Below, one piece after another: positions 41,047 to 64,000 of a stretch of 64,000 bases of DNA (the first letter of the stretch is position 1; the number at the start of each line of letters is the position of its first letter). The DNA comes from Vibrio ziniensis (GTDB lineage Bacteria; Pseudomonadota; Gammaproteobacteria; Enterobacterales; Vibrionaceae). The notes under the pieces were generated by a model, which saw nothing but the letters and a program-made list of their open reading frames with translations, did no database searches and was not told the DNA's origin. The stretch lies in the NCBI RefSeq assembly GCF_011064285.1, contig NZ_CP049332.1, positions 1,379,185 through 1,443,184 on the forward strand, in the 5' to 3' direction. The translations under genes and the position numbers were made by a program.

Positions 41047-41502
41047 CTATGAGATTTCTGTACGCCATTTTTCTACCCATGCCTCAGCGGCATCATCAAT
41101 GAGTGTAAATGCTAAACGAAAATTTAGCTCACCTCGTTTGTACGGATCTTCAATTGCGGTTGCACCTACCCAATGAGAAAACATAAATACTTTATGCTTA
41201 ATACTGGGGAAAGTGTCACAAATGGATTCCATATGCTTGGCTTCCATAACCAATATGAAGTCATTACTTTGCAGCATATGCTCTGTTAATTGCTTAGCTC
41301 GGTGGCTTCGAAGATCAATCTGCGATTCCTCAGCTATTCGCACGGCAACAGAATCAGCACGCTTCCCTACTAGACGATTTATATCGGTATCTAAACCGGC
41401 TGAAGAAATCGTCAGTTCAGGAAATAATTTCCTCAATTTATATTCGCCATAAGGAGATCGGCAGATATTACCAGTGCAAATAACTAACACTTTTCTACAC
41501 AC
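41047..41502 (-). CDS. Low-molecular-weight protein tyrosine phosphatase (Wzb-like)
   Basis: This 151-residue phosphatase has the P-loop CTGNICRS (Cys9, Arg15) at the N-terminus and the catalytic aspartate in IEDPYKRG near residue 120. Wzb-like enzymes dephosphorylate the tyrosine-rich tail of the cognate BY-kinase and so control polymer assembly. The kinase with a (Gly-Tyr)7 tail lies three genes upstream on the same strand. GTG is the chosen start. It ends the minus-strand exopolysaccharide arm. Confidence 0.92.
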   Translation of the reverse strand: MCRKVLVICTGNICRSPYGEYKLRKLFPELTISSAGLDTDINRLVGKRADSVAVRIAEESQIDLRSHRAKQLTEHMLQSNDFILVMEAKHMESICDTFPSIKHKVFMFSHWVGATAIEDPYKRGELNFRLAFTLIDDAAEAWVEKWRTEIS

Positions 41503-41566
41503 TTTCTGCTTCTCCGGTTATACATTTTTGTCATTGAAAGTATCTAACGAACAAATGCTATGACTG

Positions 41567-42640
41567 TCACTTTTTACGATAAGTATTATCTAAAAAAGAA
41601 GGCTCAGATACTTGAGATAACTCGTTTCTTTTTTTTACGATCATTTTATCTAAATTCTTAAGCGTCATTGTTTTACGATAGATCTCTTCATCTAGAACCT
41701 TCATTACATCCATAAGTGTGCGGTGAGCCCTGTCCATATCGGGTATATGTACATCTGGCATCATTTCTTGCGCTTTAATACCTAGAGGAGAAAAAGCCGT
41801 AGGCTCTGGACGCCTTGCCTTTAACCCCCCGGACAATTCTTCCCCTAACTCTTCAATAATACTTTGAATGTGGTCGAGAGTAATGGTTCCAATACCTTCC
41901 ATGAAGGCATATAAAAACAGTCGGTCCATAAATATATTGATTTTTCTCGGGATCCCTCCGGTATAATTTGTTATTAAATCAAATATATCCGAGTCTAGAC
42001 TTGGGTTTTCATTCCACCCAACTGTACGTAGCCGATGAAGAATATAGTTTTTTGTCTCATCAATATTGAAAGATTTCAGATGACATGATGCAATGATTCG
42101 TTGTCTGAATTGTTCCATTTCTGGCAATTCAATAATAGGTTTAAGCTCTTCCTGTCCAAGCAAAAAACTCTGTATTAAAGGTTTTCCATCTGCCTGAAAG
42201 TTCGACAGCATTCTGAGCTCTTCTATCGTTTCAGCGGACAAATTCTGAGCTTCATCTATAATCAACAAAGCACGTTTACCTTGCTGGTATAACGCGAAAA
42301 AGTAGTTTTCTAAGCGACGAAGTATATCAGCCTTATTTAAACCTTCGACTTGAAGACCAAAATTGGCGGCAACCATAGTAACAAGCTGCTCGGGATTCAA
42401 GCGAGTGGTTGCAATTTGTGCAGCTGTAATAGATTCGTCCAATGAGACAATCAAACTACGCGCTATCGTTGTTTTACCCGTACCTATTGGACCTGTGACG
42501 ACAATAAACCCTTCCCCTAATTCCAATCCATAGCGTAGATAAGAGATGGCTTTTGAGTGATGTGCGCTTTCAAAAAAGAACTGGGGATCAGGGCTAAGTT
42601 TAAACGGTTTGTCTGATAATCCATAATATGATTCATACAT
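41567..42640 (-). CDS. ExeA-like AAA ATPase of exosortase/exopolysaccharide loci
   Basis: This 357-residue AAA ATPase starts MYESYYGLSDKPFKLSPDPQ, a signature of the GspA/ExeA-like ATPases found in XrtA (exosortase A) exopolysaccharide loci. Walker A is GPIGTGKTT (residues 50-58) and Walker B is ALLIIDEAQN near residue 125. The C-terminal region after residue 270 is charged and rich in coiled-coil-like heptads. No peptidoglycan-binding domain is visible. Its exact job is unknown. It is probably cytoplasmic, near the export machinery. The start follows a GGAAAGAGC site. Confidence 0.88.
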   Translation of the reverse strand: MYESYYGLSDKPFKLSPDPQFFFESAHHSKAISYLRYGLELGEGFIVVTGPIGTGKTTIARSLIVSLDESITAAQIATTRLNPEQLVTMVAANFGLQVEGLNKADILRRLENYFFALYQQGKRALLIIDEAQNLSAETIEELRMLSNFQADGKPLIQSFLLGQEELKPIIELPEMEQFRQRIIASCHLKSFNIDETKNYILHRLRTVGWNENPSLDSDIFDLITNYTGGIPRKINIFMDRLFLYAFMEGIGTITLDHIQSIIEELGEELSGGLKARRPEPTAFSPLGIKAQEMMPDVHIPDMDRAHRTLMDVMKVLDEEIYRKTMTLKNLDKMIVKKRNELSQVSEPSFLDNTYRKK

Positions 42641-42642
42641 AC

Positions 42643-44097
42643 TTAAAGCTCTTTCCTTACATTCAGGTAAACTCGATTTTCTTGATATTCTCGATCAACA
42701 TTCGATGAAGAACGGTTTTTATAAGAAAACTCCAAACTCGCATTAAAATCCTTCGTAAAATCATGCTTCAGCTCTAAACTTAGCTTTCTATAGTAATCCT
42801 TCTGATAAGTATCGCCAGCCGTTTGAAATGTATAATACTCGTACAGAAAACTAGGCTTAAACGACGTTTTTCTTGAAAGATGATGATTTAAAGATAGCTC
42901 ACTACTATAAGTATCTACATCTGTATCATCTGACAAAGTGTTAATAGCCTTTTGATTATCAGCATCTATTTCCAAATTAAACGTTGTACGTCGCAATTCC
43001 AAAACCGACTTCCAAGCTAATTTTTTTGTAATACTTAAATCTTCTATCCGGTTGCCTTCAATATATAGGTCTCGGTCATAGTTAGTCACTTCTTCCGTGT
43101 AACTAATCGTATTCGTCCAACGTCGGTTACTGTGAGTGAGAGATAGGTTATACGCATCGCCATAAAACCGTCTCGTATATTCGAACTGTAGATTCGTTCT
43201 ATCAGATGGCTGCAGCACCACTGAACCTCGCCAGTGATCAGAATTATCATCATCTAGTGAAAACTCATATCCAAGGCTCAGATAGGAATATCTATCTATA
43301 TAATATTTGATGCCAGGTCCCCAACTTGATGAATCAGCGCTGTCGCTAGCAGTCTGTCCGGAATAATCTTCGTAATATAAGTGCAGATATGGACTTAAAC
43401 TGTGTATAGGTTGTAAGCCAATTTCTTGATCAAGTTGCATAGACTCCGTGTCATTGGTATCACTATGACCGATTGTCTTTTGATAGGTATATTTAGTTGT
43501 CCAAAAGTAGCGCTTTATATCCTGTCCCTGAGTGAAATTAATGTTCCCTTTATAGCTATGATTGTTACCGACATTGTCCTTATAGTCCTTAACAGAACCA
43601 TAGATACTGGCATTCAAGTCTACCATTCCGGCAGGATTAGTTTGGTATGAGAAACCTACTGTCGCCTCTCTACTCTCTACGGTATTACCATTCACAATAT
43701 CGCTACTGGCGTTATTTGTGATATCCGATGCAATATTGGAGATAGATGCAGAAATATTACCGCGAAAACGATTTTGGTCGAATAATCCTTTATCTGCCGT
43801 CAATTTCAAATCATGAAACAGTCCGTTTTTATCTGAATTATTAGAGTAATACAGCTGTTCCATTGAATAGGACAATGAGGCGTTACCATCATTCCCTGTC
43901 GACTGAATATCCAAACCAGCTATAAACGATGCGATTTCACTTGTTTGTTCATTTGAAGCGGTTAAGTCTACATTGTCTGTATAAGTCACTCCTGCTTCAA
44001 CTCTGGGCTTTACGGTGACATCGGCTGCAAAACCAACATTGTTAAAAAACGCCAAGCAGATGAGATAGCTTCTATTTATTCTTACCCTTCGAACCAT
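42643..44097 (-). CDS. Outer-membrane beta-barrel protein of the exosortase/exopolysaccharide system
   Basis: This protein of about 484 residues has a signal peptide (MVRRVRINRSYLICLAFFNN, then an AFA-like end) and many alternating strands rich in Tyr, Asp and Ser, ending in an aromatic-polar strand (NRVYLNVRKEL). This is the pattern of the barrel protein regularly encoded in XrtA loci, probably the polymer export pore. Start codons upstream of 44097 read through the kinase's Gly-Tyr repeat in another frame and would give an Asp/Met-rich tail, so they were rejected. The reading frame overlaps the kinase gene by 26 bp. Confidence 0.8.
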   Translation of the reverse strand: MVRRVRINRSYLICLAFFNNVGFAADVTVKPRVEAGVTYTDNVDLTASNEQTSEIASFIAGLDIQSTGNDGNASLSYSMEQLYYSNNSDKNGLFHDLKLTADKGLFDQNRFRGNISASISNIASDITNNASSDIVNGNTVESREATVGFSYQTNPAGMVDLNASIYGSVKDYKDNVGNNHSYKGNINFTQGQDIKRYFWTTKYTYQKTIGHSDTNDTESMQLDQEIGLQPIHSLSPYLHLYYEDYSGQTASDSADSSSWGPGIKYYIDRYSYLSLGYEFSLDDDNSDHWRGSVVLQPSDRTNLQFEYTRRFYGDAYNLSLTHSNRRWTNTISYTEEVTNYDRDLYIEGNRIEDLSITKKLAWKSVLELRRTTFNLEIDADNQKAINTLSDDTDVDTYSSELSLNHHLSRKTSFKPSFLYEYYTFQTAGDTYQKDYYRKLSLELKHDFTKDFNASLEFSYKNRSSSNVDREYQENRVYLNVRKEL

Positions 44098-44998
44098 AGC
44101 CATAGCCGTACCCATATCCATATCCGTATCCATAGCCCGCTTTATGTACAGCCTTATTAACTATAAAACCGATATTCATATCACTATTCAACAAAGCAAC
44201 TGCCTGTTTTACATCTGAAATTTTGGTTTTATTCTGTTCAACAACAATGACGGCTTGTCCGATAAGATTAGACAAAGTAACGGTTTCAACCACCCCTAAT
44301 AGGGGTGGACAATCCAAAACAATTATCCTATCTGAGTAGCGGTTGGCCAGTTCTTGCATTAAAGCGAGCATTCGATCGCTGGATAAAAGCTCATAGCTCA
44401 TATGATGTGCTCTACCAGCTGGCATAATTCGAAGATCTGGGACAGATGTCGGATAGATAATGTCTCCTACATCGTCGATTTCACCCGATAGATAATCAAT
44501 GAGTCCGGCCTGCTCTCCTAAGTCCAAACATTCATCGATACTAGGGCTTAGTACATCCGCATCAATAAGCAATACGGTTTTGTCTTGTTCAGAAGCAATA
44601 CTTAACGCTAGATTAATAGATATGAATGTTTTCCCTTCATTTGGATTGGCACTCGACACCATCACAAGATTATTTGCTAATGTTTCTTGCCGATTGACTC
44701 CAAACGCATTTTTCAACAATTTCTGTTTAATAACCCGAAATTCATCTCTGACTAGGCGTTCGGACATACTCGCGTTCAAGCTAATCATTCCTAACGACTT
44801 GAGGCGGGCGTCATCTATGAAAAGAGTTTTCTGTTTCTTGTGAGATACAGAGACTTCCTTGTCCTCTATTTTTTCAGAATACGCAGTCGCTATTTTGACT
44901 TTGGTACTCAGTTCATCGGTCTGTAGCTTAGGTTTCACAGACTCAGCATTACCGGGAGAACGATTAAGCTGTTCCATCGCTTTTTCAATAGTACTCAC
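44072..44998 (-). CDS. BY-type tyrosine autokinase of the exosortase/exopolysaccharide system
   Basis: This 308-residue cytoplasmic tyrosine kinase starts MSTIEKAMEQLNRS, typical of XrtA-associated kinases. Walker A is SANPNEGKTF (about 116-125), Walker A' is LLIDADV (143-149) and Walker B is IIVLDCPP. It lacks the membrane-spanning chain-length domain, which is encoded separately next door, as in Firmicute-type BY-kinases. The C-terminus is a (Gly-Tyr)7-Gly-Ser-Lys tail, the presumed autophosphorylation cluster. The GTG start follows AGGGAT. Its phosphatase partner is encoded at 41047. Confidence 0.92.
   Translation of the reverse strand: MSTIEKAMEQLNRSPGNAESVKPKLQTDELSTKVKIATAYSEKIEDKEVSVSHKKQKTLFIDDARLKSLGMISLNASMSERLVRDEFRVIKQKLLKNAFGVNRQETLANNLVMVSSANPNEGKTFISINLALSIASEQDKTVLLIDADVLSPSIDECLDLGEQAGLIDYLSGEIDDVGDIIYPTSVPDLRIMPAGRAHHMSYELLSSDRMLALMQELANRYSDRIIVLDCPPLLGVVETVTLSNLIGQAVIVVEQNKTKISDVKQAVALLNSDMNIGFIVNKAVHKAGYGYGYGYGYGYGYGSKGKNK
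44093..44137 (-). repeat. Hexanucleotide-type repeat encoding (Gly-Tyr)7 at the kinase tail
   Basis: Fifteen codons form GGN-TAY units seven times plus a final Gly, a near-perfect 6-bp period. The next gene starts inside this DNA in another frame. Changes in repeat number would alter the number of phosphorylatable tyrosines without a frameshift, as each unit is 6 bp. Confidence 0.9.
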
Positions 44999-45010
44999 AA
45001 TAGCTTATCC

Positions 45011-46579
45011 CTAAATAAATCTGTCGCGTACGATCGTATTAAAACTTTGAACTAACTCCTCACGTAGAGGTGGCATCATGTTCATTGCCAAAAACGCAGC
45101 GAATAGTCCAAGCAATAGAATGTTAGAAAAAATAAAGACCCTCATTTTTCTCTTTTCCCACTTAATCAATCCAGAAACCTCTGTAGCAGATACAATACCT
45201 AAAACAGGTAGTTCAAGTGATTGAACTAAATCTCGACTGGAAGATATAACCGGGGATATTTGACTGAAAAGAAAAGAAATACCACCACCAGCGCCCAAAG
45301 AAAAGATAAGAACAGCGACGAGTAACATTACTCGTGGAGGGCCAGATGGTTTATCAGGGACTCTTGGTGGGTCGATAATACGGAACTTAATATCATCAGA
45401 CGAATTATCAACACTTTTTGAGATCAGCGCACTTTCCTTACGAGACAACAATTGCTCATATTTGTCTTTAGTAATGTCATAGTTTCGAGTCAGAGCAGTT
45501 AATTTTGCTTCTACATCCGGAACTTTATCTAAGCTCGCCTGCAACTCATTAATACGTGACTTGTATTGTTCAACACGAGTGTTCAATGAAGCCACTTCAT
45601 TTTCAAGCTGACCGTAATTCATTTTCAAATCTTGATAGATCAAATTATTTTTTAGCGCTTCATCCGCAGTAAAACTAGATAGTTTTGCATCTTTAACGTC
45701 TTGTAACTCTTTTAACTGCCTGCGAGTTTCAATAACATCGGGGTGTTTATCAGTATAGCGAAAGAGCAAATCGTCAAGACGCTGTTGCAAGGATTCAATG
45801 CGATCATCATATTCGGTACGAATCTTAGAGATATCTCTTTTTGCTCTCTGCTCTTCTTTAAGCATCTGACTACGGACAGAATCAAAACGGGTTTTTGTCT
45901 CTTTTAGCTGCAGTTGAGCCGTTTCTAAAGCTCCTTTGTTTTGTTCTAATTGTTGTCGATACCCATTGCCCGATCCGGGCATAAAATTGAAATATTCTCT
46001 TTTGAATTCAGCCAGTTTTTGTTCAGCATCAATAAGTCTCGACTCATAGTCTTCAATCTGGGTAGTAATTATTTTACTTGCATTATCAGTATCTAACCTT
46101 TGCTCAGACAAGGTATTCTCAACAAAGACATTTAAAGCAGCTTGAACAACATTCTTCACATAAATAGGGTCTGAGCCACTGTAGCTAATAGTGTAGAGAT
46201 TTTCTCTACCTGCAGAATGGATTTGAATATTAGACCCAAGGTTCTTAATTACCTGCTCATACTGCTGACTATTTCTTGCTCTTACATCAGCGTCGACATT
46301 CCTGGCTATCGTCTCCAAATTACTTCGGCTGAGCAGAGTTTTGACCATTAACTCTAACTCCTTAGTAGGATCTGTTTGAATAGCCAACCCGCGCAACAAA
46401 GGTTGCAAAATAGAACGGGTGTCTGCATGTATACGGGCCTCTGATGTAAACTGACTCGGAAGCATAGTCACCATAGCCCATCCAATTGGGCAAACGACCC
46501 AAACCACGATAAGAATATAACGCCTCTTTAACCAGACACCGCGCAGATACCCAATGATCTGCTCAAACATTTCCTGCAT
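45011..46579 (-). CDS. Polysaccharide chain-length determinant of the exosortase system (Wzz-like)
   Basis: This 522-residue inner-membrane protein has a Wzz-type N-terminus (QIIGYLRGVWLKRRYILIVV), an RIHADTRSILQPLLRGLAI segment, a long coiled-coil periplasmic domain from about residue 170 to 390, and C-terminal helices (VMLLVAVLIFSLGAGGGISF and a later one). This architecture, with the proline-rich FRIIDPPRVPDKPSGPPRVM segment before the helix, is that of chain-length determinants in XrtA loci. It would pair with the kinase encoded 12 bp downstream to set polymer length. AAGGAAAG precedes the ATG. Confidence 0.92.
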   Translation of the reverse strand: MQEMFEQIIGYLRGVWLKRRYILIVVWVVCPIGWAMVTMLPSQFTSEARIHADTRSILQPLLRGLAIQTDPTKELELMVKTLLSRSNLETIARNVDADVRARNSQQYEQVIKNLGSNIQIHSAGRENLYTISYSGSDPIYVKNVVQAALNVFVENTLSEQRLDTDNASKIITTQIEDYESRLIDAEQKLAEFKREYFNFMPGSGNGYRQQLEQNKGALETAQLQLKETKTRFDSVRSQMLKEEQRAKRDISKIRTEYDDRIESLQQRLDDLLFRYTDKHPDVIETRRQLKELQDVKDAKLSSFTADEALKNNLIYQDLKMNYGQLENEVASLNTRVEQYKSRINELQASLDKVPDVEAKLTALTRNYDITKDKYEQLLSRKESALISKSVDNSSDDIKFRIIDPPRVPDKPSGPPRVMLLVAVLIFSLGAGGGISFLFSQISPVISSSRDLVQSLELPVLGIVSATEVSGLIKWEKRKMRVFIFSNILLLGLFAAFLAMNMMPPLREELVQSFNTIVRDRFI

Positions 46580-46604
46580 ATACTTTTCTTTCCTTGGTTA
46601 AAAG

Positions 46605-47255
46605 TTAATACCATGCTTCGGGAATAATGATAATATCGCCTGGCAGGATATCGACATTTGCCTTCATATCCCCTTCCTTAAGCAAATCAGCCATTTTCAA
46701 ACGATATTGTTCCTGCTTTCCATCTACAATTCTCACCAAACTAGCACTGTTACCATCCGCATACTCAGTAAGACCACCCACTTGTATCATCACATCAAGT
46801 AGAGTCATATGCTGTGCATAACTAATGGCTTTTGGGTCTAACGCTTCACCTAATACTCGAACCTGTTCACTAAATGGGCCATTAAAATTATTCACAATAA
46901 CGGACACAATTGGATTGTTTAAGTAGACAGCTAACTGCTTTTCAATCTCGCGTGCGAGCTGAGTAGGCGTTTTACCCGATGCAACAATATCTTCGACCAA
47001 CGAGGTTGTAATTTTGCCATCGGGTCTAACAGTGTAACTACCTGATACTTCTGGGTTACCCCATACAAAGACATTTAGTGAATCCCCTGAACCTATTAGA
47101 TAATTGTAATTGTCAATATTTTCAGTGAGAGAAGGGTGAATGGTCGCCGTTGGCAACTCAGACAACGATGAACTGGAGCATGCTGTCGTTAACAGAATGA
47201 TACTTATCGTTGTTACACGACATAATCCACCCAATAACCCATCTATTTTGTTCAT
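46605..47255 (-). CDS. Polysaccharide export outer-membrane lipoprotein (Wza/EpsE-like)
   Basis: This 216-residue lipoprotein has a signal peptide with lipobox LLTTAC (about residues 21-26), then the polysaccharide biosynthesis/export domain (YLIGSGDSLNVFVWGNPEVS near residues 52-71) and a SLBB-like segment with SEQVRVLGEALDPKAISYAQ. It ends DILPGDIIIIPEAWY. It is the secretion conduit component typical of XrtA loci. It is the first gene of the minus-strand arm and faces the long control region with the 17-bp inverted repeat. Confidence 0.92.
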   Translation of the reverse strand: MNKIDGLLGGLCRVTTISIILLTTACSSSSLSELPTATIHPSLTENIDNYNYLIGSGDSLNVFVWGNPEVSGSYTVRPDGKITTSLVEDIVASGKTPTQLAREIEKQLAVYLNNPIVSVIVNNFNGPFSEQVRVLGEALDPKAISYAQHMTLLDVMIQVGGLTEYADGNSASLVRIVDGKQEQYRLKMADLLKEGDMKANVDILPGDIIIIPEAWY

Positions 47256-47298
47256 GATAATATCCCGCCATCAATAAAAATATTCTTCCGTGCTCTAA

Positions 47299-47760: not shown

Positions 47761-47979
47761 CTACTGTAAAGATAGAGCAGCGTTCCTTGTTAACATTAGC
47801 AGCGGCTCTATTAATCTATAAAAATATTATTTATATCATGTAGATAGCCTTCAACTTACATACATTAAGTTGCAAATTAAATTTGTGATTTTTGTTAGTA
47901 ACTGATTGAAATAAATAATTTATATAACCTAAAAAATAGTGACATATTGGATATGTCAGGTTCACTAAGAGAATCATAT

Positions 47980-49435: not shown

Positions 49436-50284
49436 ATGGAGAAAGTCAGTCGTAGTAATGCAATGACAGTGGATGTAGAAGACTATTTTCAAGTATCTGC
49501 ATTTGCCGATAAGGTCCAGTTTTCAGAGTGGGGTAATTCAAAATATCCGATTAGAGTAGAGAATAATACTGATAGACTTCTAGACATTTTTTCTAGACAT
49601 AATACTAAAGCTACCTTCTTTGTTTTAGGCTGGGTCGCAGAGGCTCGGCCTAATATTGTTAAAAAGATAGTTGAACAGGGACACGAGTTGGCCAGCCATG
49701 GCTATGCGCACCAAAGAGCAAATACACAAACACCAGAAAGCTTTAGGGAAGATGTTTACCGTAGTAAAGCATTTCTAGAAGATACATCTGGCATTGAGGT
49801 AAGAGGATATAGAGCACCCAGTTTTTCTATTGATCCTAGTAATGAGTGGGCTTTTGCAATTCTATCGCAGCTTGGCTTTACATATAGCAGCAGCACGTAT
49901 CCTGTAAAACATGACTTATATGGTGCACCCAACTGGCCACGTTTCAAGTATAAGCGTCCTGAGGGCATCATTGAAATACCCATTCCCACCAATAAAACCG
50001 CAGGAATCAATGTACCCATTGGTGGTGGCGGATTTTTTAGGCTCTACCCTTACTTGTTAAGTAAGATACTAATAAATAATTTTATAAAACAAGCAAAACA
50101 CCCCTATTGCTTTTACTTTCATCCTTGGGAAATAGATCACACGCAGCCCAGAATGACGGACGTACCTCTTAAGTCCCAGTTTCGGCACTATCTCAATTTA
50201 CATCGAATGGAAAATAGGCTCGACCGATTATTAAATGATTTTCATTGGGATACCATCAGTAAGGTTTATGAATTAAATGAATAA
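49436..50284 (+). CDS. Polysaccharide deacetylase of the exosortase system (NodB fold)
   Basis: This 282-residue deacetylase has the motif AMTVDVEDYFQVSAF at residues 9-23, which is highly characteristic of deacetylases in XrtA loci, with catalytic Asp13 and metal ligands His88 and His92 in SHGYAH. YRAPSFSID (about 123) and the late HPWEID supply the remaining pocket residues. No signal peptide is present, so it probably acts in the cytoplasm on lipid-linked sugar units. It overlaps the next gene by 8 bp. Confidence 0.93.
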   Translation: MEKVSRSNAMTVDVEDYFQVSAFADKVQFSEWGNSKYPIRVENNTDRLLDIFSRHNTKATFFVLGWVAEARPNIVKKIVEQGHELASHGYAHQRANTQTPESFREDVYRSKAFLEDTSGIEVRGYRAPSFSIDPSNEWAFAILSQLGFTYSSSTYPVKHDLYGAPNWPRFKYKRPEGIIEIPIPTNKTAGINVPIGGGGFFRLYPYLLSKILINNFIKQAKHPYCFYFHPWEIDHTQPRMTDVPLKSQFRHYLNLHRMENRLDRLLNDFHWDTISKVYELNE

Positions 50285-51338: not shown

Positions 51339-51342
51339 TTAT

Positions 51343-54119: not shown

Positions 54120-54120
54120 T

Positions 54121-56001: not shown

Positions 56002-56008
56002 GTGCTGC

Positions 56009-57193
56009 ATGAAAATACTAACCGTTTCTACCTTATTCCCTTATGAAAATAATCCTAAACACGGCATTTTTGTTGAAACTCGTCTACGTCAATTGCTGCA
56101 ACACTATCCAGATATAGAAGCGAAGGTTATTGCTCCAATCCCCTACTTTCCGTTTACTCATCCGGTGTTTGGCAGCTATGCAGAAAATGCCAAAGCGCCT
56201 TCATTTGAAGTTCGCCACGGAATTGAAGTTTATCATCCACGGTATCTTGTTATTCCCAAAATAGGCATGACACTTACACCGGTAACACTTGCTAAAGCGA
56301 TTTATAAACAAGCAAAAGACATCATCGCTAGTGGCTATGATTTTGATTTGATCGACGGGCACTATTTCTACCCTGATGGTGTGGCTATTGAAATAGTAGC
56401 TAAAAAATTAGGTAAACCATTTACGGTGACAGCTAGAGGAACAGACATCAACCTGATACCTAAATTCAATAAACCGAAAAAACAGATCCAACACGTTCTG
56501 AAAAGCAGTAATCACAACATGGCAGTATGCGAGGCTCTAAGGCAAGAAATGATTAACTTGGGAGCGGCTCCGGAAAAAGTAACGACCTTGAGAAATGGGG
56601 TTGATCTTGAACTGTTTTCTTTTTCAGACCAAACAAAGCAACAACAGCTCAGACAGCAACTTAAACTCCCTGACCAACAACCCGTCATTATTTCCACAGG
56701 GCACCTGATTGAGCGCAAAGGACATCACTTAATTATTGAAGCTTTGAGTCAGGTACCCGATGGATTACTTCTGATTGCAGGTGACGGTCCTGAGAAGAAA
56801 AAGCTCCTCAACTTAGTCGAAAAACTAGGTCTGAAAAACAGAGTTCAATTTCTCGGCAGTATCAGCCAAGTCAAATTAGCTCAGTACTATGGAGCCTCTG
56901 ATGTTTTGGTACTCGCATCAAGTCGCGAAGGCTGGGCCAACGTTCTCTTGGAAGCGATGGCCTGTGGTACACCAGTTGTAGCAACAAATATATGGGGAAC
57001 ACCAGAAGTGGTTGCACGTAAAGAAGCAGGAGTATTAGTAAATCGTAACTCTTCAGATATAGCTAGAGGAATAGTTGAAGCTCTTAATAGCAAAATTGTA
57101 CGCTCAGAGACTCGTAGGTATGCCGAGCTTTTTTCATGGACGGATACTGTAATCCTAAAAAAAACGCTTTTTAAAAAGATTATTAACAACTAG
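56009..57193 (+). CDS. Family 4 glycosyltransferase
   Basis: This 394-residue GT-B glycosyltransferase begins MKILTVSTLFPYENNPKHGI. It has an acceptor segment LIDGHYFYPDGVAIEIVAKK and a donor-binding motif (ASSREGWANVLLEAMACGTP near residue 305, EAMACG being diagnostic). It is probably one of the enzymes that extends the repeat unit. The next gene starts 21 bp later. Donor and linkage are unknown. Confidence 0.92.
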   Translation: MKILTVSTLFPYENNPKHGIFVETRLRQLLQHYPDIEAKVIAPIPYFPFTHPVFGSYAENAKAPSFEVRHGIEVYHPRYLVIPKIGMTLTPVTLAKAIYKQAKDIIASGYDFDLIDGHYFYPDGVAIEIVAKKLGKPFTVTARGTDINLIPKFNKPKKQIQHVLKSSNHNMAVCEALRQEMINLGAAPEKVTTLRNGVDLELFSFSDQTKQQQLRQQLKLPDQQPVIISTGHLIERKGHHLIIEALSQVPDGLLLIAGDGPEKKKLLNLVEKLGLKNRVQFLGSISQVKLAQYYGASDVLVLASSREGWANVLLEAMACGTPVVATNIWGTPEVVARKEAGVLVNRNSSDIARGIVEALNSKIVRSETRRYAELFSWTDTVILKKTLFKKIINN

Positions 57194-57214
57194 CACAAGA
57201 AGGGTTTAAATTAG

Positions 57215-58162
57215 ATGAATCAATATTGCCATGTACTTGGAATAATGCCTAGATCAGGTACTAATTATCTAGAAAATATAATTTCGCTTCATACGAAATG
57301 TAAACCATGTGACCCTATATATGAAGACTTTCTAATAAGCCAATCAGAACTGCTAATAAGATTTTCAAAGAAAGTGAGAAGGTATTGGAACCCTAACTGG
57401 GATACTAATAACGAATATCTAACTGAAAAGAACTTATTAGAACATATCGGCTATGGCTTACATAGATTCCTGTCAAGTCCACATCTAGGACAAGAAGTCA
57501 CCAACGATGGTCAAAATAATATCACTATCAGTAAAACTCCTTCGGTGAAAGGTATAGAGCATTTTTTTCAACTCTTCCCAAATTCAAAACTGATTATCCT
57601 AGTTAGAGATGGCAGAGCAATTGTAGAATCTGGGTGTAAGTCTTTTGATTGGGACTTTGAGAAAGCCTGTTTTGACTGGAGTCGATTGGTAAAACGCATC
57701 AATGCTTTTATTGCGGAAAACACTGATCATAAAGCTCAAATCAAAATGGTTAGATATGAAGATCTGATCAACAATACAGAAGAGGAAGTACCGCTAATCT
57801 TCAAATTTCTTCAAGTTAATGAAGATGAAGTTCTCATAGAGGACGTAAAAAATTTGCACATTTCAGGTTCATCTGAGACAAAGAAAACGAATAAAGAAGT
57901 TACATGGCAGCCTAAAAAAATGGACGATAACTTTAAACCTCTAGAACGTTTTTCGCACTGGAGTCGTTATAAAAGAAGAAGATTTGAATGGATATCTGGA
58001 AATAGTTTGATCTCTATGGGCTATGTAAATAGTTTGGAAAGATTTACTATTCTTGAGAGAATAGCACATACTATTCTTGACATTAGTTGGCCAATTAGAG
58101 TTATTCCAAAAACTATTATAAATCTTATTATTTCCAGAAAATTCGTCCTTAAAACTTATTAA
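57215..58162 (+). CDS. Sulfotransferase-family protein
   Basis: This 315-residue protein has a P-loop MPRSGTNYLENIIS near residue 11 for the 5'-phosphosulfate of PAPS and a 3'-phosphate segment LIILVRDGRAIVES near residue 130. A basic C-terminal region (SRYKRRRFEWISG) follows. It would sulfate the polymer or its lipid-linked precursor, a feature common in marine polysaccharides. The gene lies between two glycosyltransferase genes. AAGGG precedes the ATG. The substrate is inferred from position only. Confidence 0.87.
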   Translation: MNQYCHVLGIMPRSGTNYLENIISLHTKCKPCDPIYEDFLISQSELLIRFSKKVRRYWNPNWDTNNEYLTEKNLLEHIGYGLHRFLSSPHLGQEVTNDGQNNITISKTPSVKGIEHFFQLFPNSKLIILVRDGRAIVESGCKSFDWDFEKACFDWSRLVKRINAFIAENTDHKAQIKMVRYEDLINNTEEEVPLIFKFLQVNEDEVLIEDVKNLHISGSSETKKTNKEVTWQPKKMDDNFKPLERFSHWSRYKRRRFEWISGNSLISMGYVNSLERFTILERIAHTILDISWPIRVIPKTIINLIISRKFVLKTY

Positions 58163-58178
58163 TCATTCAGGCTTAGTC

Positions 58179-59330
58179 ATGAAAATTCTTTACCATCACC
58201 GAATAGCCTCTAAAGATGGCCAATATGTACATGTAGAGGAAATAATTAAGGCTTTAAGAAAACAAGGCCATGACGTTATTGTTGTATCGCCTCAGCTAGT
58301 TGAACAATCTGATTTTGGTAGCGATGGTGGCTGGGTATCAAAATTAAGACAAAATGTGCCACAAATAATTTCAGAGTCACTTGAATTTTCATATTCCATT
58401 TGGGTTTTTTGTAAGCTTTGCTATGCCATAATGAAACATCGTCCGGATTGTATCTATGAAAGATACAACCTATTCCTCCCTTCTGGAATATGGGCAAAAA
58501 AAATATTTCAATTGAAGCTTCTGCTCGAGGTTAATTCTCCGTTATATGATGAGCGAAAGAAGTATGGTGGAATCGCATTAAATAGGATTGCAAAGTGGTC
58601 AGAATACTATGCTTGGCGAAACGCAGACCATGTGTTACCAGTAACGCGTGTTTTAGCCAGTTATATTATCAAAGCCGGAGTTCCCGACTCTCGCATTACC
58701 GTGCTGCCAAACGGAATTGACCCCTCGCTTTTCTACCCATCTGACGAGCCTAATCGTGATAAAGAGTTTCATGACAAACTTGTTATTGGCTTTGTTGGGT
58801 TTTGCCGAGAATGGCATAGACTAGACCAAGTGTTAAAGCTTATTGCTAGTGAAGAAAATCCTAATCTAATGCTTCTGATCGTTGGTGATGGTCCAGTAAT
58901 TGAACAGCTACAAGAACTCGCCAGAAGCCTTCAACTTCAAGAAAGGTTCCATATCACTGGGCTAGTTGATCGACAAAACATGCCACATTGGTTAAATCAG
59001 ATAGATATCGCTATTCAACCAGCAGTAACACCATGGGCTTCACCGCTAAAGCTAATTGAATATTTAGCAAAGGGTAAAGCTATAGTCGCTCCCAATAACC
59101 CGAATATCAGAGAGTTATTGAGTGACGATGTCAACGCACTGTTATTTGAACCAGAAAATGCAGAAAGTATGATACAAAAAATTCGTGAAATAATTGAAGA
59201 TAAATCCTTACGTATGCGCCTACAAACACAAGCTCATAATACTATTAAAGAACAAAATTTAACTTGGAATCATAATGCGATGAGAATCGAAAGAATTTTT
59301 CAAGAAAATATTACTCAATCAGGGAAATGA
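58179..59330 (+). CDS. Family 4 glycosyltransferase
   Basis: This 383-residue GT-B enzyme begins MKILYHHRIASKDGQYVHVE and has a C-terminal domain with GFVGFCREWHRLDQVLKLI, GDGPVIEQLQELA and the donor motif ASPLKLIEYLAKGKAIVAPN. It ends 3 bp before the converging acyltransferase gene, so transcripts of the two arms meet here without a clear terminator. Substrates are unknown. Confidence 0.9.
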   Translation: MKILYHHRIASKDGQYVHVEEIIKALRKQGHDVIVVSPQLVEQSDFGSDGGWVSKLRQNVPQIISESLEFSYSIWVFCKLCYAIMKHRPDCIYERYNLFLPSGIWAKKIFQLKLLLEVNSPLYDERKKYGGIALNRIAKWSEYYAWRNADHVLPVTRVLASYIIKAGVPDSRITVLPNGIDPSLFYPSDEPNRDKEFHDKLVIGFVGFCREWHRLDQVLKLIASEENPNLMLLIVGDGPVIEQLQELARSLQLQERFHITGLVDRQNMPHWLNQIDIAIQPAVTPWASPLKLIEYLAKGKAIVAPNNPNIRELLSDDVNALLFEPENAESMIQKIREIIEDKSLRMRLQTQAHNTIKEQNLTWNHNAMRIERIFQENITQSGK

Positions 59331-59332
59331 AT

Positions 59333-60391
59333 TTATTTATTAACTAATGGCAAAAACACACATAACATTTTCTTTTTAGCTGGTAACTCAAAAAATTTAT
59401 ACGTTAAATGGGAAGTAAGTAAAACTAAAAATAGATACACCATACTCCATTCCAAAGAGGCTTGATCTGTATCTAAAAACAACTTCATTATATCTCTTAT
59501 AATGTAGTGCCCTAGATAAATTGAATAACTTATATCACCCAACCATAATAGAACCTTCGGCACTTTAACTGATATATTATCTTCAATAAAAATCATAAGA
59601 CTCACAAAAACCATCATAAAAATAGGTAGCCAAAAATAATTTTTTAAGTTCATTGCAATAGAAAAAGCCAATATAGACACCATACCTAAAAACAGGTACT
59701 TACCTTTAAAATAGTAAAGATGCCCTTCTCGATAAAGGCCAAAAATAACAATTCCAAGAATAAATTCAAAAATACACCGCCATATACCTAACATTGGAAT
59801 ATAATCTCCAATATTATTAGCGTTTTTTTGACTAAACAATAATGCAATAACGGAACAACTAAATATCGTAGCAAGAAATAAAAGGCTTAAAGAGCGTAGT
59901 CTATTGATAATAAGAATAATAAAAGGGAAAAGTAGATAGCACGAAAATTCAGTACTTATTGACCAAGAAGGAATATTCCAGGTAAGTGTATCGTGAAACC
60001 CCCAGTTATTGACTAATGCTAAACTGGTGAAATACGACTGGTAGTCATACACCACAGGCACATCTCGACCTGTAAGCATAAAAGTAACGGGTAACGAAAG
60101 ATAAAGAAGCATGATTGCTAGATGTAAAGGGTAAATTCTCGCGATACGTTTAATATAAAAAGAGACCAAATTCCTATAGCTAAAGCTTTGCGACAACTGT
60201 TCTTGATAAGTCATAGCAATAACAAATCCACTTAGCACGAAAAAAAAGTCAACTGCAACATATCCCATGCTAAGAGTATGGTTAACCCATGGCCCAACCA
60301 AATGATAAAGGTTTGGTTGTATGTGATAAAAAACTACCCACAGTGCCAGAATGCCTCTAAGAGCAGTTAAAATATCAAAACTCTTCTGCAC
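59333..60391 (-). CDS. Acyltransferase 3 family membrane protein
   Basis: This 352-residue membrane protein has about ten helices. The N-terminal ALRGILALWVVFYHIQPNLY holds the conserved histidine and arginine-rich region of the AT3 family, followed by GYVAVDFFFVLSGFVIAMTY. AT3 proteins move acetyl or other acyl groups across the membrane onto sugars; here an O-acetylation of the exopolysaccharide is likely. The GTG start follows AAGGAA and overlaps the ligase-like gene by 17 bp, so translation is coupled. Confidence 0.92.
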   Translation of the reverse strand: MQKSFDILTALRGILALWVVFYHIQPNLYHLVGPWVNHTLSMGYVAVDFFFVLSGFVIAMTYQEQLSQSFSYRNLVSFYIKRIARIYPLHLAIMLLYLSLPVTFMLTGRDVPVVYDYQSYFTSLALVNNWGFHDTLTWNIPSWSISTEFSCYLLFPFIILIINRLRSLSLLFLATIFSCSVIALLFSQKNANNIGDYIPMLGIWRCIFEFILGIVIFGLYREGHLYYFKGKYLFLGMVSILAFSIAMNLKNYFWLPIFMMVFVSLMIFIEDNISVKVPKVLLWLGDISYSIYLGHYIIRDIMKLFLDTDQASLEWSMVYLFLVLLTSHLTYKFFELPAKKKMLCVFLPLVNK

Positions 60392-61658
60392 GTGATTCCT
60401 TCTCTTTTAGTTCTTTATAAATAAGAGTGTAATGAGCGGCGGATAGAGCAATTAAATGATAAATAATTGGCTTATAGGCCACACCGATGAAGCATCCTCC
60501 AATGCAAAAAATATAAATTGCGTGATTCATAGCCAAACAAAAGTCTTTCGCATTTTGATCTGTACCCTTTTTCTTAATAAGTGATTTATTGATGCGTATT
60601 GCACTAATAATTAAGCTTAGAAATAGGAACAAACCCACATACCCTTGCTCACCTAATACTTCGAAATAAATACTATGAAAAGCCAGAGAATTCGGGGTAT
60701 TTATAAAAACAGGATCGTAGAAACCAAGTTGCCCGTAATTTGCAACAAAGCTATTGAAACCACCGCCCATGATCGGATGACTATTTGCATAATCTATAGT
60801 CCACTTCCAAACAGCAAGTCTTTGCGAACCCGATGTATCAGTTATGGTATTCATCCTTTCGATCCAAGACTCTGGTGCAAAGTGATAGAGAGCGAAAACT
60901 GTCACTATGGTTAGCGGAATAGTACCAAGAAGAGCACGAAAATTAAGCGACTTAATGCCCATGTAAGCAAAAAGTGCAACTAAGCCTGTACGAGCGGTCG
61001 ATCCTACAACAGCAGCAACACAAAGGACGTAGGGAAGAAACCATACTAGAGTTCTATTTTTCAAGAAAGGAACAAAGCTAATATGTTTCTTCAAATATGA
61101 AATAATTGGAATTGTAAGAACAGCAAGACAAGCTAAGGAAGAACTTTCAGACCATCCAGAATTGGAAGAGTTCAAAATTAATCTAGCACCATATCCCCCA
61201 CCACCTAAAATCGTTTTTGGTCCTGCGGAAGCCATGTAAAACATGATAGATAAGAATAAAACAAGTATAACAAATTCAAGTTGCTTTCGATTAGTGATAG
61301 TAAACATTAATAAAAATGCCATGATTAATGTTTTAAATGAAGTATCCCATTTTTTCCAGGCTATAGGTGGAAATTGCGCGTTAAAAGTCGATATAGTTAT
61401 CCAAATAATAAAGCAGATAAATAAAAATGGGATAAGTTTTGAGTTAGAACTTATTAATTTCCTAGAATTCAAGACTAAACTCAAAAAGCAAACTATTGCC
61501 ATAACCATAGAAATAGGTTTCCCCAAAAGAAAGCCAAAAACTAATCCTTGTGGGACGACAGTATCAACCCATAGATAACCAGCGAAAGCCAAGTAAGGAC
61601 GAGTTAATCCAGGTATGATAAATGCTAAAATGATAATTAAAACAAGTAAATCACGCAT
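60375..61658 (-). CDS. O-antigen-ligase-like membrane protein of the exosortase system
   Basis: This 427-residue membrane protein with about eleven helices starts MRDLLVLIIILAFIIPGLTR, then VDTVVPQGLVFGF and HPIMGGGFNSF near residue 300. This N-terminus matches the putative O-glycosylation ligases that accompany exosortase A. They may transfer glycan to exported proteins or polymerise repeat units; the activity is unproven. The ATG at 61658 was chosen; a GTG at 61661 is also open. A 40-codon gene overlaps its start. Confidence 0.88.
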   Translation of the reverse strand: MRDLLVLIIILAFIIPGLTRPYLAFAGYLWVDTVVPQGLVFGFLLGKPISMVMAIVCFLSLVLNSRKLISSNSKLIPFLFICFIIWITISTFNAQFPPIAWKKWDTSFKTLIMAFLLMFTITNRKQLEFVILVLFLSIMFYMASAGPKTILGGGGYGARLILNSSNSGWSESSSLACLAVLTIPIISYLKKHISFVPFLKNRTLVWFLPYVLCVAAVVGSTARTGLVALFAYMGIKSLNFRALLGTIPLTIVTVFALYHFAPESWIERMNTITDTSGSQRLAVWKWTIDYANSHPIMGGGFNSFVANYGQLGFYDPVFINTPNSLAFHSIYFEVLGEQGYVGLFLFLSLIISAIRINKSLIKKKGTDQNAKDFCLAMNHAIYIFCIGGCFIGVAYKPIIYHLIALSAAHYTLIYKELKEKESRAEEF

Positions 61659-61773
61659 CACTACTATTCTTTTTATGCTGTCTATTATCTTTACTTTCTG
61701 ATTTCAACATCAAGTACACCACAAAAACTATCCCTAAATGAGAAATTGCAAAAGCCAAAGTATCTATATCCAT
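61651..61773 (-). CDS. Unrecognised 40-residue single-helix membrane protein upstream of the ligase-like gene
   Basis: The ATG at 61773 follows a GAGGG site by about 6 nt, and the frame ends with a TGA that overlaps the ligase start by 8 bp, a typical sign of translational coupling. The product has one hydrophobic helix (LAFAISHLGIVFVVYLMLK, residues 6-24) and a charged tail (SESKDNRQHKKNSSDA) that should face the cytoplasm. No family was recognised. It may be a small partner of the ligase-like protein. Confidence 0.65.
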   Translation of the reverse strand: MDIDTLAFAISHLGIVFVVYLMLKSESKDNRQHKKNSSDA

Positions 61774-61788
61774 ATAATTCCCTCACAC

Positions 61789-62913
61789 TCAACCATTCCC
61801 TAAATAAATATCACTATATGCTTCAATCATTATATCTTGGTTAAATTTTTCAATTATTCTATTACGAGCTTTCACCGACATAATCTTTGTTCGCTCTTTT
61901 TTTACGAATAGATCTAACAACCCTCTAGAGTAATTACAAACATCATCCGAATGAACTGACAGTCCTGTTTCTTCCTCTTTTATTACTTCTTTTATCCCCC
62001 CAACCAACGTAACTAAATGAGGTATAGACATTGACATTGATTCTAATAACGTCATTGGAATACCTTCAGCTATCGACGACATTAAAAATGCGTCAAAACG
62101 ACAGTAAAAATCCCGAACATTTGTTTTAGACCCAGTAAACAAGACCCTCTCCTTCAATACTGGATTTTCTGACACAAAATTTTCTAAGCACTTCCTATCC
62201 GGTCCATCCCCAACAATTACCAAGATACATTGGTCACTGAACTCACTTGAATTTTTACAAGCCATTAAAAAAGATTTAAGCATAAGGGTTTGGTTTTTTA
62301 TTGAGTGTAACCTGGCGACATGCCCAAAGATGAACTTCCCATCAAGCTCGTTTAATTCTTGAGAAACCACACCTTCTGGGTTGAAATAGTTAGTGTCTAT
62401 CCCATTTACAATTAGGTGTAATTTTTTAGAAGGAATTCCAACCTCGCAAACCAACCAATCACTCAAATCTTGGGATACTGCGACTACTCTATGGATAGCG
62501 TAACTGCAGATTTTTCTTATTAGCTGATATTTTTTTGATGCGCCATTTGGATCATAACTATCACGTCCATGCTCTGCATGTATGCGTAACGGTACTCGTG
62601 CAAACATAGCGACCCAATGATACTCAACGGTTCCGAGATTATAGGTATGGAATACATCTGGCTTTAACTCGTTTAATAGACGATAAAGTTTAAAATAGAC
62701 TGAAATATCATTTCCTTCTTTTTTATTCAAAGAATAATGCGTAATTGGAAAATTAATTTCATTTATAAAATCCGTGATATGTGTCAAAGATATTATCGTG
62801 TGATGAAACTTTTCATTATCAAGGTTATTTATACAATTAACAATTATTCTTTCCAACCCACCAATATCAAAACTATGGACTAGGTGACATACATGTCTTT
62901 TGCTCTTATTCAT
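61789..62913 (-). CDS. Exosortase-associated glycosyltransferase (family 4, GT-B)
   Basis: This glycosyltransferase of about 374 residues has the start CHLVHSFDIGGLERIIVNCI and RIHAEHGRDSYDPNGASKKY around residue 115 typical of sugar transferases in PEP-CTERM/EpsH loci. The donor motif lies near AEGIPMTLLESMSMSIPHLV. The ATG at 62913 agrees best with relatives; ATG at 62928 has an AAGG that is too close, and a TTG at 62961 is unlikely. The gene is divergent from the kinase gene at 63073 and heads the second minus-strand group. Confidence 0.88.
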   Translation of the reverse strand: MNKSKRHVCHLVHSFDIGGLERIIVNCINNLDNEKFHHTIISLTHITDFINEINFPITHYSLNKKEGNDISVYFKLYRLLNELKPDVFHTYNLGTVEYHWVAMFARVPLRIHAEHGRDSYDPNGASKKYQLIRKICSYAIHRVVAVSQDLSDWLVCEVGIPSKKLHLIVNGIDTNYFNPEGVVSQELNELDGKFIFGHVARLHSIKNQTLMLKSFLMACKNSSEFSDQCILVIVGDGPDRKCLENFVSENPVLKERVLFTGSKTNVRDFYCRFDAFLMSSIAEGIPMTLLESMSMSIPHLVTLVGGIKEVIKEEETGLSVHSDDVCNYSRGLLDLFVKKERTKIMSVKARNRIIEKFNQDIMIEAYSDIYLGNG

Positions 62914-63072
62914 CTCAATTTTGAACATTTCCTTAAAAATAATTAATTTGACCAGTTTCAAACTAGAACCCTTGACACAAACAGTATAGGTTACTAAACA
63001 TAATTTAAATACAAAATTAACCTTTAGACTAATTTTCTTATAAAAAGTACAACTGAAATAAGGCAGGACGCT

Positions 63073-64000
63073 ATGATAGTAAGATCACGCTCCCCGTTAC
63101 GCTTAGGTTTAGCTGGCGGTGGAACTGATATTTCGCCCTATTGTGATACTTTCGGTGGCTGTGTGTTAAACGCAACCATTAATATGTATGCCTACTGTAC
63201 GATTGAGCTTTTAGAAGCACAGGATGGTATTACCTTTATAGCCCAAGACTTAAAAACAGAATTCCACACACCCTTAACCAAGTACATAGAACTCTCAGGG
63301 GAGTTGCAGTTACATAAAGCGGTATATAATCGCATTATTCATGACTTTAATAATGACCGCCCACTACCGGTCAAAGTATATACCTATTCAGATGCTCCAC
63401 CCGGCAGTGGTCTTGGCTCCTCTTCAACTATGGTAGTAACAATACTTAGCGCGTATAGACATTTACTAAAACTTCCACTTAGCGAATACGATATTGCACG
63501 TATGGCCTATGAAATTGAAAGGATAGACTGCAGGCTATCTGGTGGACGACAAGATCAGTACGCGACAACATTCGGTGGCTTCAACTTTATGGAGTTTTAC
63601 GAGAATGAGCGAGTTATCGTCAATCCATTACGTATAAGACATAGTATAATCAATGAGTTAGAGAGCCAGCTAATGCTTTATTTCACTGGTGTATCTCGCT
63701 CCTCAGCTAAGATTATTGATGACCAGATAAAAAGTACATCCGATGAAAAACGCCTTGAAGCAATGCATGAAGTTAAAAACCTCGCTTATACAATGAAAGA
63801 GTGCCTATTGAAATCTGATGTTAATGGCATGTCCGAACTTTTTAAGCACGCATGGCTAGCTAAGAAGTCTACTTCTTCTTCGATCTCTACAAAACAGATT
63901 GAGCTAATTGAGGACAAAGTCTTAAGCGCAGGTGCAAAATCACTAAAAATATCAGGAGCTGGCGGCGGTGGATTTTTGATGCTTTTTGTGGAGCCAGTAA
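63073..64000 (+). CDS. GHMP-family sugar kinase, heptose-7-phosphate kinase-like (partial)
   Basis: The gene starts at 63073 after a GGCAGGA site and runs off the right edge; about 309 codons are present. The start MIVRSRSPLRLGLAGGGTDI and the ATP loop PPGSGLGSSSTM near residue 110 are those of GHMP kinases such as D-glycero-D-manno-heptose 7-phosphate kinase (HddA/WcbL). RQDQYATTFGGFNFMEF and the late ISGAGGGGF match as well. It would begin a GDP-heptose precursor pathway, suggesting heptose in the polymer. Other genes of that route must lie beyond the window. Confidence 0.85.
   Translation, partial: MIVRSRSPLRLGLAGGGTDISPYCDTFGGCVLNATINMYAYCTIELLEAQDGITFIAQDLKTEFHTPLTKYIELSGELQLHKAVYNRIIHDFNNDRPLPVKVYTYSDAPPGSGLGSSSTMVVTILSAYRHLLKLPLSEYDIARMAYEIERIDCRLSGGRQDQYATTFGGFNFMEFYENERVIVNPLRIRHSIINELESQLMLYFTGVSRSSAKIIDDQIKSTSDEKRLEAMHEVKNLAYTMKECLLKSDVNGMSELFKHAWLAKKSTSSSISTKQIELIEDKVLSAGAKSLKISGAGGGGFLMLFVEPV

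What the first reader, a model, noticed from the sequence alone, without database searches (positions are those of the whole stretch)
41047..64000. Near-complete exosortase A exopolysaccharide locus without a PEP-CTERM substrate
The window encodes XrtA with its Cys178/Arg223/His244 triad. It also encodes the characteristic accompanying set: ExeA-like ATPase, barrel protein, split kinase and chain-length protein, export lipoprotein, EpsB-like priming enzyme, NodB deacetylase with AMTVDVEDYF, FemAB-like protein, two exosortase-type glycosyltransferases, amidotransferase and ligase-like protein. No protein with a C-terminal VPEP-helix-basic tail, no PrsK/PrsR-like sensor/regulator pair and no PrsT-like TPR protein is visible. 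In a Vibrio-like genome this arrangement is unusual. Here XrtA may serve remote substrates or act mainly in polymer export. The family assignments are from known motifs; the biological role is inference.
Basis: partly seen in the sequence, partly recalled or inferred. Interest (0 to 1): 0.8.

Follow-up and report, generated by a model that had tools for sequence, protein, structure and literature searches.

The report
Ordinary exosortase locus cut by record
A Vibrio-like bacterium appears to have a complete, ordinary system for making a sticky coat and fastening proteins into it; its 'missing' protein and control genes lie just past the point where the chromosome's record was cut open.

Summary
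The gene assignments hold. XrtA (334 bits, cut-off 208) has Cys178/Arg223/His244, and twelve XrtA/PEP-CTERM-specific models pass their cut-offs.

The headline claim, that substrate and PrsK/PrsR/PrsT are missing, is an edge artefact. The window ends on the last base of contig C2 (1,443,184 bp). The heptose-kinase gene cut there continues in frame at C2:1 and then fills its profile end to end, so C2 is almost certainly circular. PrsT, a PEP-CTERM protein, PrsK and PrsR follow 18-29 kb past that edge. Two more PEP-CTERM genes lie at C2:284 kb and C2:677 kb. Each of the three substrate genes has two PrsR-type boxes, one followed by a sigma-54-like site.

In the family sample, 24 of 24 XrtA genomes also have PEP-CTERM and PrsK; 0 of 20 tested XrtA-lacking genomes (of 173) do.

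So this is a standard XrtA/PEP-CTERM system. One by-product may be new: box and promoter stand whole DNA-helix turns apart (about 42, 51, 62, 73, 83 bases), also in the 35 of 52 held-out regions that have both.

The parts
41047..41502 (-). low-molecular-weight protein tyrosine phosphatase, Wzb-like
   Evidence: NF007520 132 bits, below its cut-off of 243
41567..42640 (-). XrtA/PEP-CTERM-associated ExeA-like ATPase
   Evidence: TIGR03015 355 bits, cut-off 324.5
42643..44133 (-). PEP-CTERM-associated outer-membrane barrel protein
   Evidence: TIGR03016 189.8 bits, cut-off 90.9
44072..44998 (-). XrtA-associated tyrosine autokinase
   Evidence: TIGR03018 241.4 bits, cut-off 230.7
45011..46579 (-). 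XrtA-system chain-length determinant
   Evidence: TIGR03007 540 bits, cut-off 278.9
46605..47255 (-). XrtA-system exopolysaccharide export lipoprotein
   Evidence: TIGR03027 235.9 bits, cut-off 180
47947..49383 (+). EpsB-like priming glycosyltransferase
   Evidence: TIGR03013 491 bits, cut-off 393.4
49436..50284 (+). XrtA-system polysaccharide deacetylase (NodB type)
   Evidence: TIGR03006 406 bits, cut-off 276.2
50277..51338 (+). FemAB-like XrtA-associated protein
   Evidence: TIGR03019 407 bits, cut-off 260.4
51307..52563 (+). XrtA-system glycosyltransferase stp1
   Evidence: TIGR03087 437.9 bits, cut-off 316.7
52553..53998 (+). exosortase A (XrtA) with degenerate C-terminal EpsI-like domain; triad C178/R223/H244
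   Evidence: TIGR03109 334.4 bits, cut-off 208; EpsI domain 19.7 bits, below 42.8; triad invariant in 19 of 19 rows; the only TIGR02602 match in the genome
54121..56001 (+). XrtA-system amidotransferase (asparagine-synthase type)
   Evidence: TIGR03108 949 bits, cut-off 816.9
56009..57193 (+). GT4 glycosyltransferase
   Evidence: best match TuaC model 207 bits, below its cut-off of 550
57215..58162 (+). unassigned protein; sulfotransferase-like by eye only
   Evidence: no NCBIfam match
58179..59330 (+). GT4 glycosyltransferase
   Evidence: stp3 model 117 bits, below its cut-off of 442
59333..60391 (-). acyltransferase-3-like membrane protein, by eye only
   Evidence: no NCBIfam match
60375..61661 (-). 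exosortase-A-associated putative O-glycosylation ligase / polymerase-like protein
   Evidence: TIGR03097 228.6 bits, cut-off 188.1
61789..62961 (-). XrtA-system glycosyltransferase stp2
   Evidence: TIGR03088 363.4 bits, below its cut-off of 409.1
63073..64000 (+). HddA-like heptose-7-phosphate kinase, cut by the window/record end; continues in frame to C2:95
   Evidence: 340-aa frame across the record start; joined protein covers NF049969 1-338/338, 405.6 bits against 380.1 for the cut piece, both below the cut-off of 600

Best explanation
This is one arm of a complete, conventional XrtA/PEP-CTERM exopolysaccharide system. It appears truncated only because the circular second replicon was linearised inside the locus, in hddA. 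Shown by sequence: the genes, the in-frame continuity across the record start, three PEP-CTERM proteins, PrsK/PrsR/PrsT, RpoN, and paired PrsR-type boxes with a sigma-54-like site before each of the three substrate genes. Inferred from the known family: PrsK activates PrsR; PrsR bound at the box activates sigma-54 RNA polymerase at the PEP-CTERM genes; the precursors leave through Sec; the single exosortase XrtA cleaves near the PEP motif using Cys178 and hands the proteins on. Meanwhile the priming enzyme, glycosyltransferases, flippases, chain-length pair, export lipoprotein and barrel make and export the polysaccharide in which the sorted proteins are held.
For: Family scores. Window end = contig end. 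hddA reads through into C2:1 (340 aa) and fills its profile, followed by overlapping gmhA-like and hddC-like genes. PrsT 580.8, PrsK 633 and PrsR 687 bits, each above cut-off, at C2:17.7-28.8 kb. Three PEP-CTERM proteins. XrtA is the only exosortase match and one RpoN is present. Boxes stand before 3 of 3 substrate genes and nowhere else in the 59 kb of C2 fetched. Co-occurrence of XrtA with PEP-CTERM and PrsK is 24 of 24 against 0 of 20 tested. XrtA and PrsK lie 12-188 kb apart (19 of 20 within 56 kb) in the 20 of 23 other XrtA genomes with both on one contig, and 36 kb apart here once the circle is closed.
Against: Circularity of C2 is inferred from one gene and its neighbours, not from reads; the hddA, gmhA and hddC-like proteins are all below their models' cut-offs. 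The third substrate is borderline: 24.0 bits but 20.5, against 20.7. TIGR02595's cut-off of 16 is passed by chance in 2 of 14 control genomes, so its 18.7 and 20.1 bits alone are weak; PF07589 passes its cut-off in 0 of 14. PrsT's cut-off is passed in 1 of 14 controls. The 20 negative genomes are all from the window's own genus, and 153 further negatives were not tested. In the gene at C2:677 kb the box with the sigma-54 site is the upstream copy; the copy nearest the gene, 40 bases before the start codon, has none, unlike Haft's rule that the 3'-most copy leads to the promoter. EpsI is below cut-off. No biochemistry is shown here.
Confidence: 0.95

Rival explanations
1. One reading: XrtA has lost its sorting role and serves only polysaccharide export.
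For: No substrate or Prs gene was found among the window proteins scanned and no genome-search hit above cut-off falls in the window; only three substrates are found in the genome.
Against: Three PEP-CTERM genes with box and sigma-54-like site exist, and the catalytic triad is intact. PrsK, PrsR and PrsT match their models over nearly the full length.
Confidence: 0.03
2. C2 is linear, or its ends are not adjacent, so the Prs/substrate cluster is a separate locus about 1.4 Mb from XrtA on the same replicon.
For: The record itself carries no proof of circularity; linear XrtA-PrsK distance is 1,404,450 bases.
Against: hddA continues in frame over the junction for 31 codons and completes its profile; a gmhA-like gene overlaps its end. 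In 19 of 20 other genomes with both genes on one contig they lie within 56 kb.
Confidence: 0.03
3. The three PEP-CTERM tails are chance C-terminal matches, not XrtA substrates.
For: PEP-CTERM is a 24-position model; one hit is borderline; TIGR02595's cut-off is passed in 2 of 14 control genomes.
Against: 0 of 20 tested XrtA-lacking genomes of the same genus have a PF07589 hit at E 1e-3, against 24 of 24 with XrtA. All three genes carry two boxes, one with a sigma-54-like site.
Confidence: 0.02

Closest known systems
XrtA (EpsH)/PEP-CTERM system of Proteobacteria with PrsK/PrsR/PrsT (Haft et al. 2006, PMC1569441; section 7 and passages, part of the abstract among them, read)
   Same: XrtA in a large exopolysaccharide locus, PrsK-PrsR in tandem, PrsT near, PEP-CTERM genes with a 17-nt box ending TTTACA and a sigma-54 motif downstream.
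   Different: Few substrates (3), two of them far from the locus; in one gene a second box lies downstream of the promoter. Nothing categorically different.
Aquincola tertiaricarbonis RN12 pepA/prsT/prsK floc-formation genes (PMC9850573; passages, part of the abstract among them, read)
   Same: PEP-CTERM gene with sigma-54 promoter and upstream enhancer-like sequence; TIGR03013 priming enzyme; PrsK/PrsR; PrsT.
   Different: There the genes were tested by mutation. Here all is sequence only, in a different organism.
XrtA loci of Vibrio salinus, Vibrio sp. PID17_43, Photobacterium, Enterovibrio and an Aliivibrio MAG
   Same: XrtA 45-66% identical in the best segment in these seven of the nine records (the other two, Catenovulum and Paraglaciecola, are 35 and 30%).
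   Different: The bodies of the window genome's three substrates had no tblastn match (E 1e-3, tails removed) in 136 fetched loci.

Membership tests
exosortase A (XrtA, TIGR03109) | score above the curated cut-off | tested here: met
   334.4 bits against 208
exosortase A (XrtA, TIGR03109) | Cys, Arg, His active-site residues | tested here: met
   C178, R223, H244; invariant in 19 of 19 aligned rows
exosortase A (XrtA, TIGR03109) | cleaves/sorts PEP-CTERM proteins | not testable with these tools
   needs experiment
XrtA/PEP-CTERM system | PEP-CTERM proteins in the same genome | tested here: met
   3 above cut-off in genome searches; one is 0.2 bit under the Pfam cut-off in hmmscan; controls over cut-off 0 of 14 for PF07589, 2 of 14 for TIGR02595
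XrtA/PEP-CTERM system | PrsK (TIGR02916), PrsR (TIGR02915), PrsT (TIGR02917) | tested here: met
   633, 687.2, 580.8 bits against 300, 502.6, 312.2; controls over cut-off 0, 0 and 1 of 14
XrtA/PEP-CTERM system | box ending TTTACA followed by a sigma-54 site 32-92 nt downstream of it, upstream of PEP-CTERM genes | tested here: met
   3 of 3 own genes; spacings 60, 71, 72; in one gene not from the 3'-most box
XrtA/PEP-CTERM system | exopolysaccharide locus with XrtA-specific markers | tested here: met
   12 XrtA/PEP-CTERM-specific models above cut-off, XrtA itself among them

The most novel reading that the evidence does not exclude
PrsR works from a close, helix-phased site: the box stands a whole number of DNA turns (about 42, 51, 62, 73 or 83 bases) upstream of the sigma-54 -24 element. 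The geometry would then be a rigid face-of-the-helix device rather than a free loop, and a sharp rule for finding XrtA substrates from DNA alone. Haft 2006 gives only a mean of 62.8 and SD 10.6. No mention of phasing was found in the searches named in Tried and rejected, but only two of the listed papers were opened.
Probability: 0.65. Interest if true: 0.35.

Novelty: new member of a known kind. Interest (0 to 1): 0.2.

Why it matters
It removes a false lead. A substrate-less, polymer-only exosortase would have challenged the sorting model; instead the genome fits the model in the parts that sequence can test. It also warns that a contig end of a circular replicon can look like loss of genes. 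The by-product, phased spacing of PrsR boxes and sigma-54 sites, offers a mechanistic constraint on PrsR and a way to list its targets.

Tried and rejected
Weak PEP-CTERM hits on C1 (14.4, 11.2 and 11.2 bits) were rejected: below cut-off, no PrsR box in their loci, and tails not at a plausible protein end. The single box in the window (62394-62410) lies within the stp2 coding region, on the other strand, with no sigma-54-like site after it, and was taken as chance (0.46 expected). So the polysaccharide genes in the window show no PrsR box of their own.

A family or origin for the three substrate bodies was sought and not found: Pfam gave only the PEP-CTERM tail, and there was no tblastn match in 136 fetched loci. 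No structure prediction and no protein-database search was run, since neither would change the verdict.

Literature on phasing or on the system in Vibrionaceae, held open-access library only. 'PEP-CTERM, enhancer, helical': only Haft 2006, where the one hit for 'helical' is in a reference title and 'phas' and 'periodic' do not occur. 'PEP-CTERM, PrsR, spacing', at least two of three: 20 papers listed, 7 of them with both PEP-CTERM and PrsR, each with 0 occurrences of 'spacing'. PMC9850573 holds none of 'phas', 'spacing', 'helical', 'helix'. 'PEP-CTERM, sigma-54, response regulator' (five papers) and 'PEP-CTERM, PrsK, RpoN', at least two (13 papers): listings, of which I opened only Haft 2006 and PMC9850573. 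'PEP-CTERM, exosortase, Vibrio' (14 papers), 'PEP-CTERM, Photobacterium, exosortase' (three) and 'PEP-CTERM, Vibrionaceae' (two) likewise: listings, no further paper opened.
Full report
What is there. The window encodes the exopolysaccharide arm of an exosortase A system. Twelve XrtA/PEP-CTERM-specific NCBIfam models, XrtA itself among them, are above their curated cut-offs; the second exosortase-type glycosyltransferase (stp2) is not (363 against 409 bits). XrtA carries C178, R223 and H244, invariant in 19 of 19 aligned rows. Twenty sequences were available (the window's own and 19 loci), L041 gave no frame passing my filter, and at least two rows seem to be genomes reached twice. The fused C-terminal EpsI-like domain is recognisable but below cut-off (19.7 against 42.8 bits). 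The exosortase model TIGR02602 has no other match in the genome.

Why parts seemed missing. The genome is two contigs, and the window is C2:1379185-1443184. C2 is 1,443,184 bases long, so the window ends where the record ends. The heptose-kinase gene at 63073 is open at that edge. Read on into C2:1 it stays open for 31 more codons and stops at C2:95, giving 340 residues. The joined protein matches the HddA model over 1-338 of 338 at 405.6 bits, against 1-307 at 380.1 bits for the cut piece; both are below that model's cut-off of 600. A gmhA-like gene overlaps its end and an hddC-like gene follows, both also below their cut-offs. C2 is therefore almost certainly circular and was opened inside the locus. 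This rests on gene continuity, not on reads.

What lies across the record start. Beyond two flippase-like genes (163 and 128 bits, below the cut-off of 273) and further sugar-handling genes come PrsT (C2:17743-20592, 580.8 bits, cut-off 312.2), a PEP-CTERM protein (C2:24285-25133), PrsK (C2:25290-27332, 633 bits, cut-off 300) and PrsR (C2:27417-28766, 687.2 bits, cut-off 502.6). In the 14 control genomes these cut-offs are passed in 1 (PrsT), 0 and 0. XrtA and PrsK are 35,954 bases apart across the record start and 1,404,450 apart in linear coordinates. Of 23 other XrtA-bearing genomes of the family sample, 20 have both on one contig; the gaps are 12-188 kb with a median of 16.5 kb, and 19 of 20 are within 56 kb.

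Substrates. Three PEP-CTERM proteins pass TIGR02595 (31.7, 20.1, 18.7 bits; cut-off 16) and Pfam PF07589 in the genome search (31.2, 28.9, 24.0; cut-off 20.7). TIGR02595's cut-off is also passed in 2 of 14 control genomes, PF07589's in 0 of 14. In hmmscan of the whole proteins the third is 20.5, just below. By eye each begins with a signal-peptide-like stretch and ends in a PEP motif, a hydrophobic stretch and a basic tail. Apart from the tail, no Pfam domain is found.

Control region. Haft et al. 2006 describe a 17-nt box ending in TTTACA, the 3'-most copy of which is followed after 32-92 nt (mean 62.8, SD 10.6) by a sigma-54 site (section 7 read). Each of the three substrate genes here has two copies of TGTCN7TTTACA (one of the six copies reads TGAC), one copy being followed by a -24/-12-like site at 72, 71 and 60 bases. 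In the third gene that is the upstream copy; its second box lies 40 bases before the start codon with no site after it. These six are the only boxes in the 59 kb of C2 fetched. The window itself has one box, inside coding sequence, where 0.46 are expected by chance. RpoN is present.

Is it unusual? XrtA is found in 24 of 197 family genomes, 3 of them in the window's genus. All 24 have PEP-CTERM at E 1e-3 and PrsK above cut-off. Of the 173 XrtA-lacking genomes I tested the 20 that one search listed, all of the window's own genus: 0 of 20 have either. Seven of the nine named records found with XrtA are Vibrio, Enterovibrio, Photobacterium or Aliivibrio, the other two Catenovulum and Paraglaciecola. 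The system is thus uncommon in this family but, by these two markers, complete wherever it was found.

By-product: phased spacing. With a box defined on the window genome's own promoters, I fetched the 92 other PEP-CTERM hit regions. Of the first 40, 23 have a box and 21 box plus sigma-54-like site; of the 52 held out, 39 and 35. Spacings are 51-52, 61-64 and 74 in the first set, and 42, 50-53, 60-64 and 74 in the held-out set, with none in between. The window genome's own 60, 71 and 72 are 0.2, 0.8 and 0.9 of a turn from the main peak, so less exact. Antisense boxes: none in the first 43 regions, and in 7 of the 52; by coordinates four of those (L102, L103, L138, L139) overlap a divergent PEP-CTERM gene's region, three do not, and one of the three (L118) has a sigma-54-like site at 19 bases. 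In 414 kb of other strand-bases there were two boxes, one of which is itself a PEP-CTERM promoter. Outside the family, 6 of 120 sampled genomes (the own one included) have PEP-CTERM at E 1e-5. Of the 37 places in the other five, 28 were given as loci and scanned: 7 have a box and 6 a sigma-54-like site, at 53, 61, 63, 64, 64 and 83; one antisense box was found; none of the 7 loci from one genome (G215) has a box. With one promoter per protein family (33), the Rayleigh length at a 10.5-base period is 0.82; in simulation none of 20,000 Gaussian draws of the same mean and SD reached it. The peak is broad, 10.25-11.75 bases. Leaving out the 60-64 cluster, the other 13 are in phase with it (p about 2e-5 against uniform), but nine of the 13 are one cluster (50-53), so the case rests on four side clusters at -1.9, -1.1, +1.1 and +2.0 turns. 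One protein family holds members at 52, 62, 64 and 74. Caveats: related genomes are not independent; three of 62 promoters had no protein found and were left out of the one-per-family count; the sigma-54 score threshold was mine, its consensus recalled and agreeing with the site reported in PMC9850573.

How it most likely works. PrsK/PrsR with sigma-54 switch on the PEP-CTERM genes. In Aquincola, pepA transcription depends on RpoN1, and overexpressed PepA raises bound and lowers soluble exopolysaccharide; a prsK or prsK-prsR plasmid failed to restore the prsK mutant there, so the PrsK/PrsR step is not proven (PMC9850573, passages read). XrtA then processes the exported precursors and the proteins end up holding polysaccharide made by the window's genes. 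The steps from PrsK signal to XrtA cleavage are inference from the family; gene content, promoter-like sites and co-occurrence are shown.

Verdict. The system is a new member of a known kind and ordinary, apart from the phasing.

Noticed in passing
upstream of PEP-CTERM genes: L019:14993-15239, L021 and L022 (own genome), L043-L082, L090-L141, L142-L169: PrsR box to sigma-54 -24 spacing clusters in whole helical turns (about 42, 51, 62, 73, 83), also in held-out regions and in six promoters outside the family.
   Followed up: partly
L020:943-1872 (C2:29943-30872): An HprK-related kinase A gene (TIGR04352, 280 bits, cut-off 200) followed by a nucleotidyltransferase-like gene (by eye) lies about 1.2 kb beyond prsR; whether this belongs to the system is open.
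   Followed up: no
window 39904-41040: A pectate lyase gene (TIGR02474, 289.6 bits, cut-off 189.8) abuts the exopolysaccharide locus.
   Followed up: no
L023:1372-5786: Three acyltransferase-like membrane proteins (by eye) lie just past the record start; with the one in the window they suggest an acylated polymer.
   Followed up: no
L019:3983-5854: A 623-residue protein seems to join an ATP-grasp-like part (weak match, 47.5 bits against a cut-off of 218) to a C-terminal low-molecular-weight phosphatase-like part (by eye).
   Followed up: no
L022:5228-5244 (-), upstream of the PEP-CTERM gene at C2:677 kb: A second PrsR-type box lies between the sigma-54-like site and the start codon, where an activator site would not be expected.
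   Followed up: no
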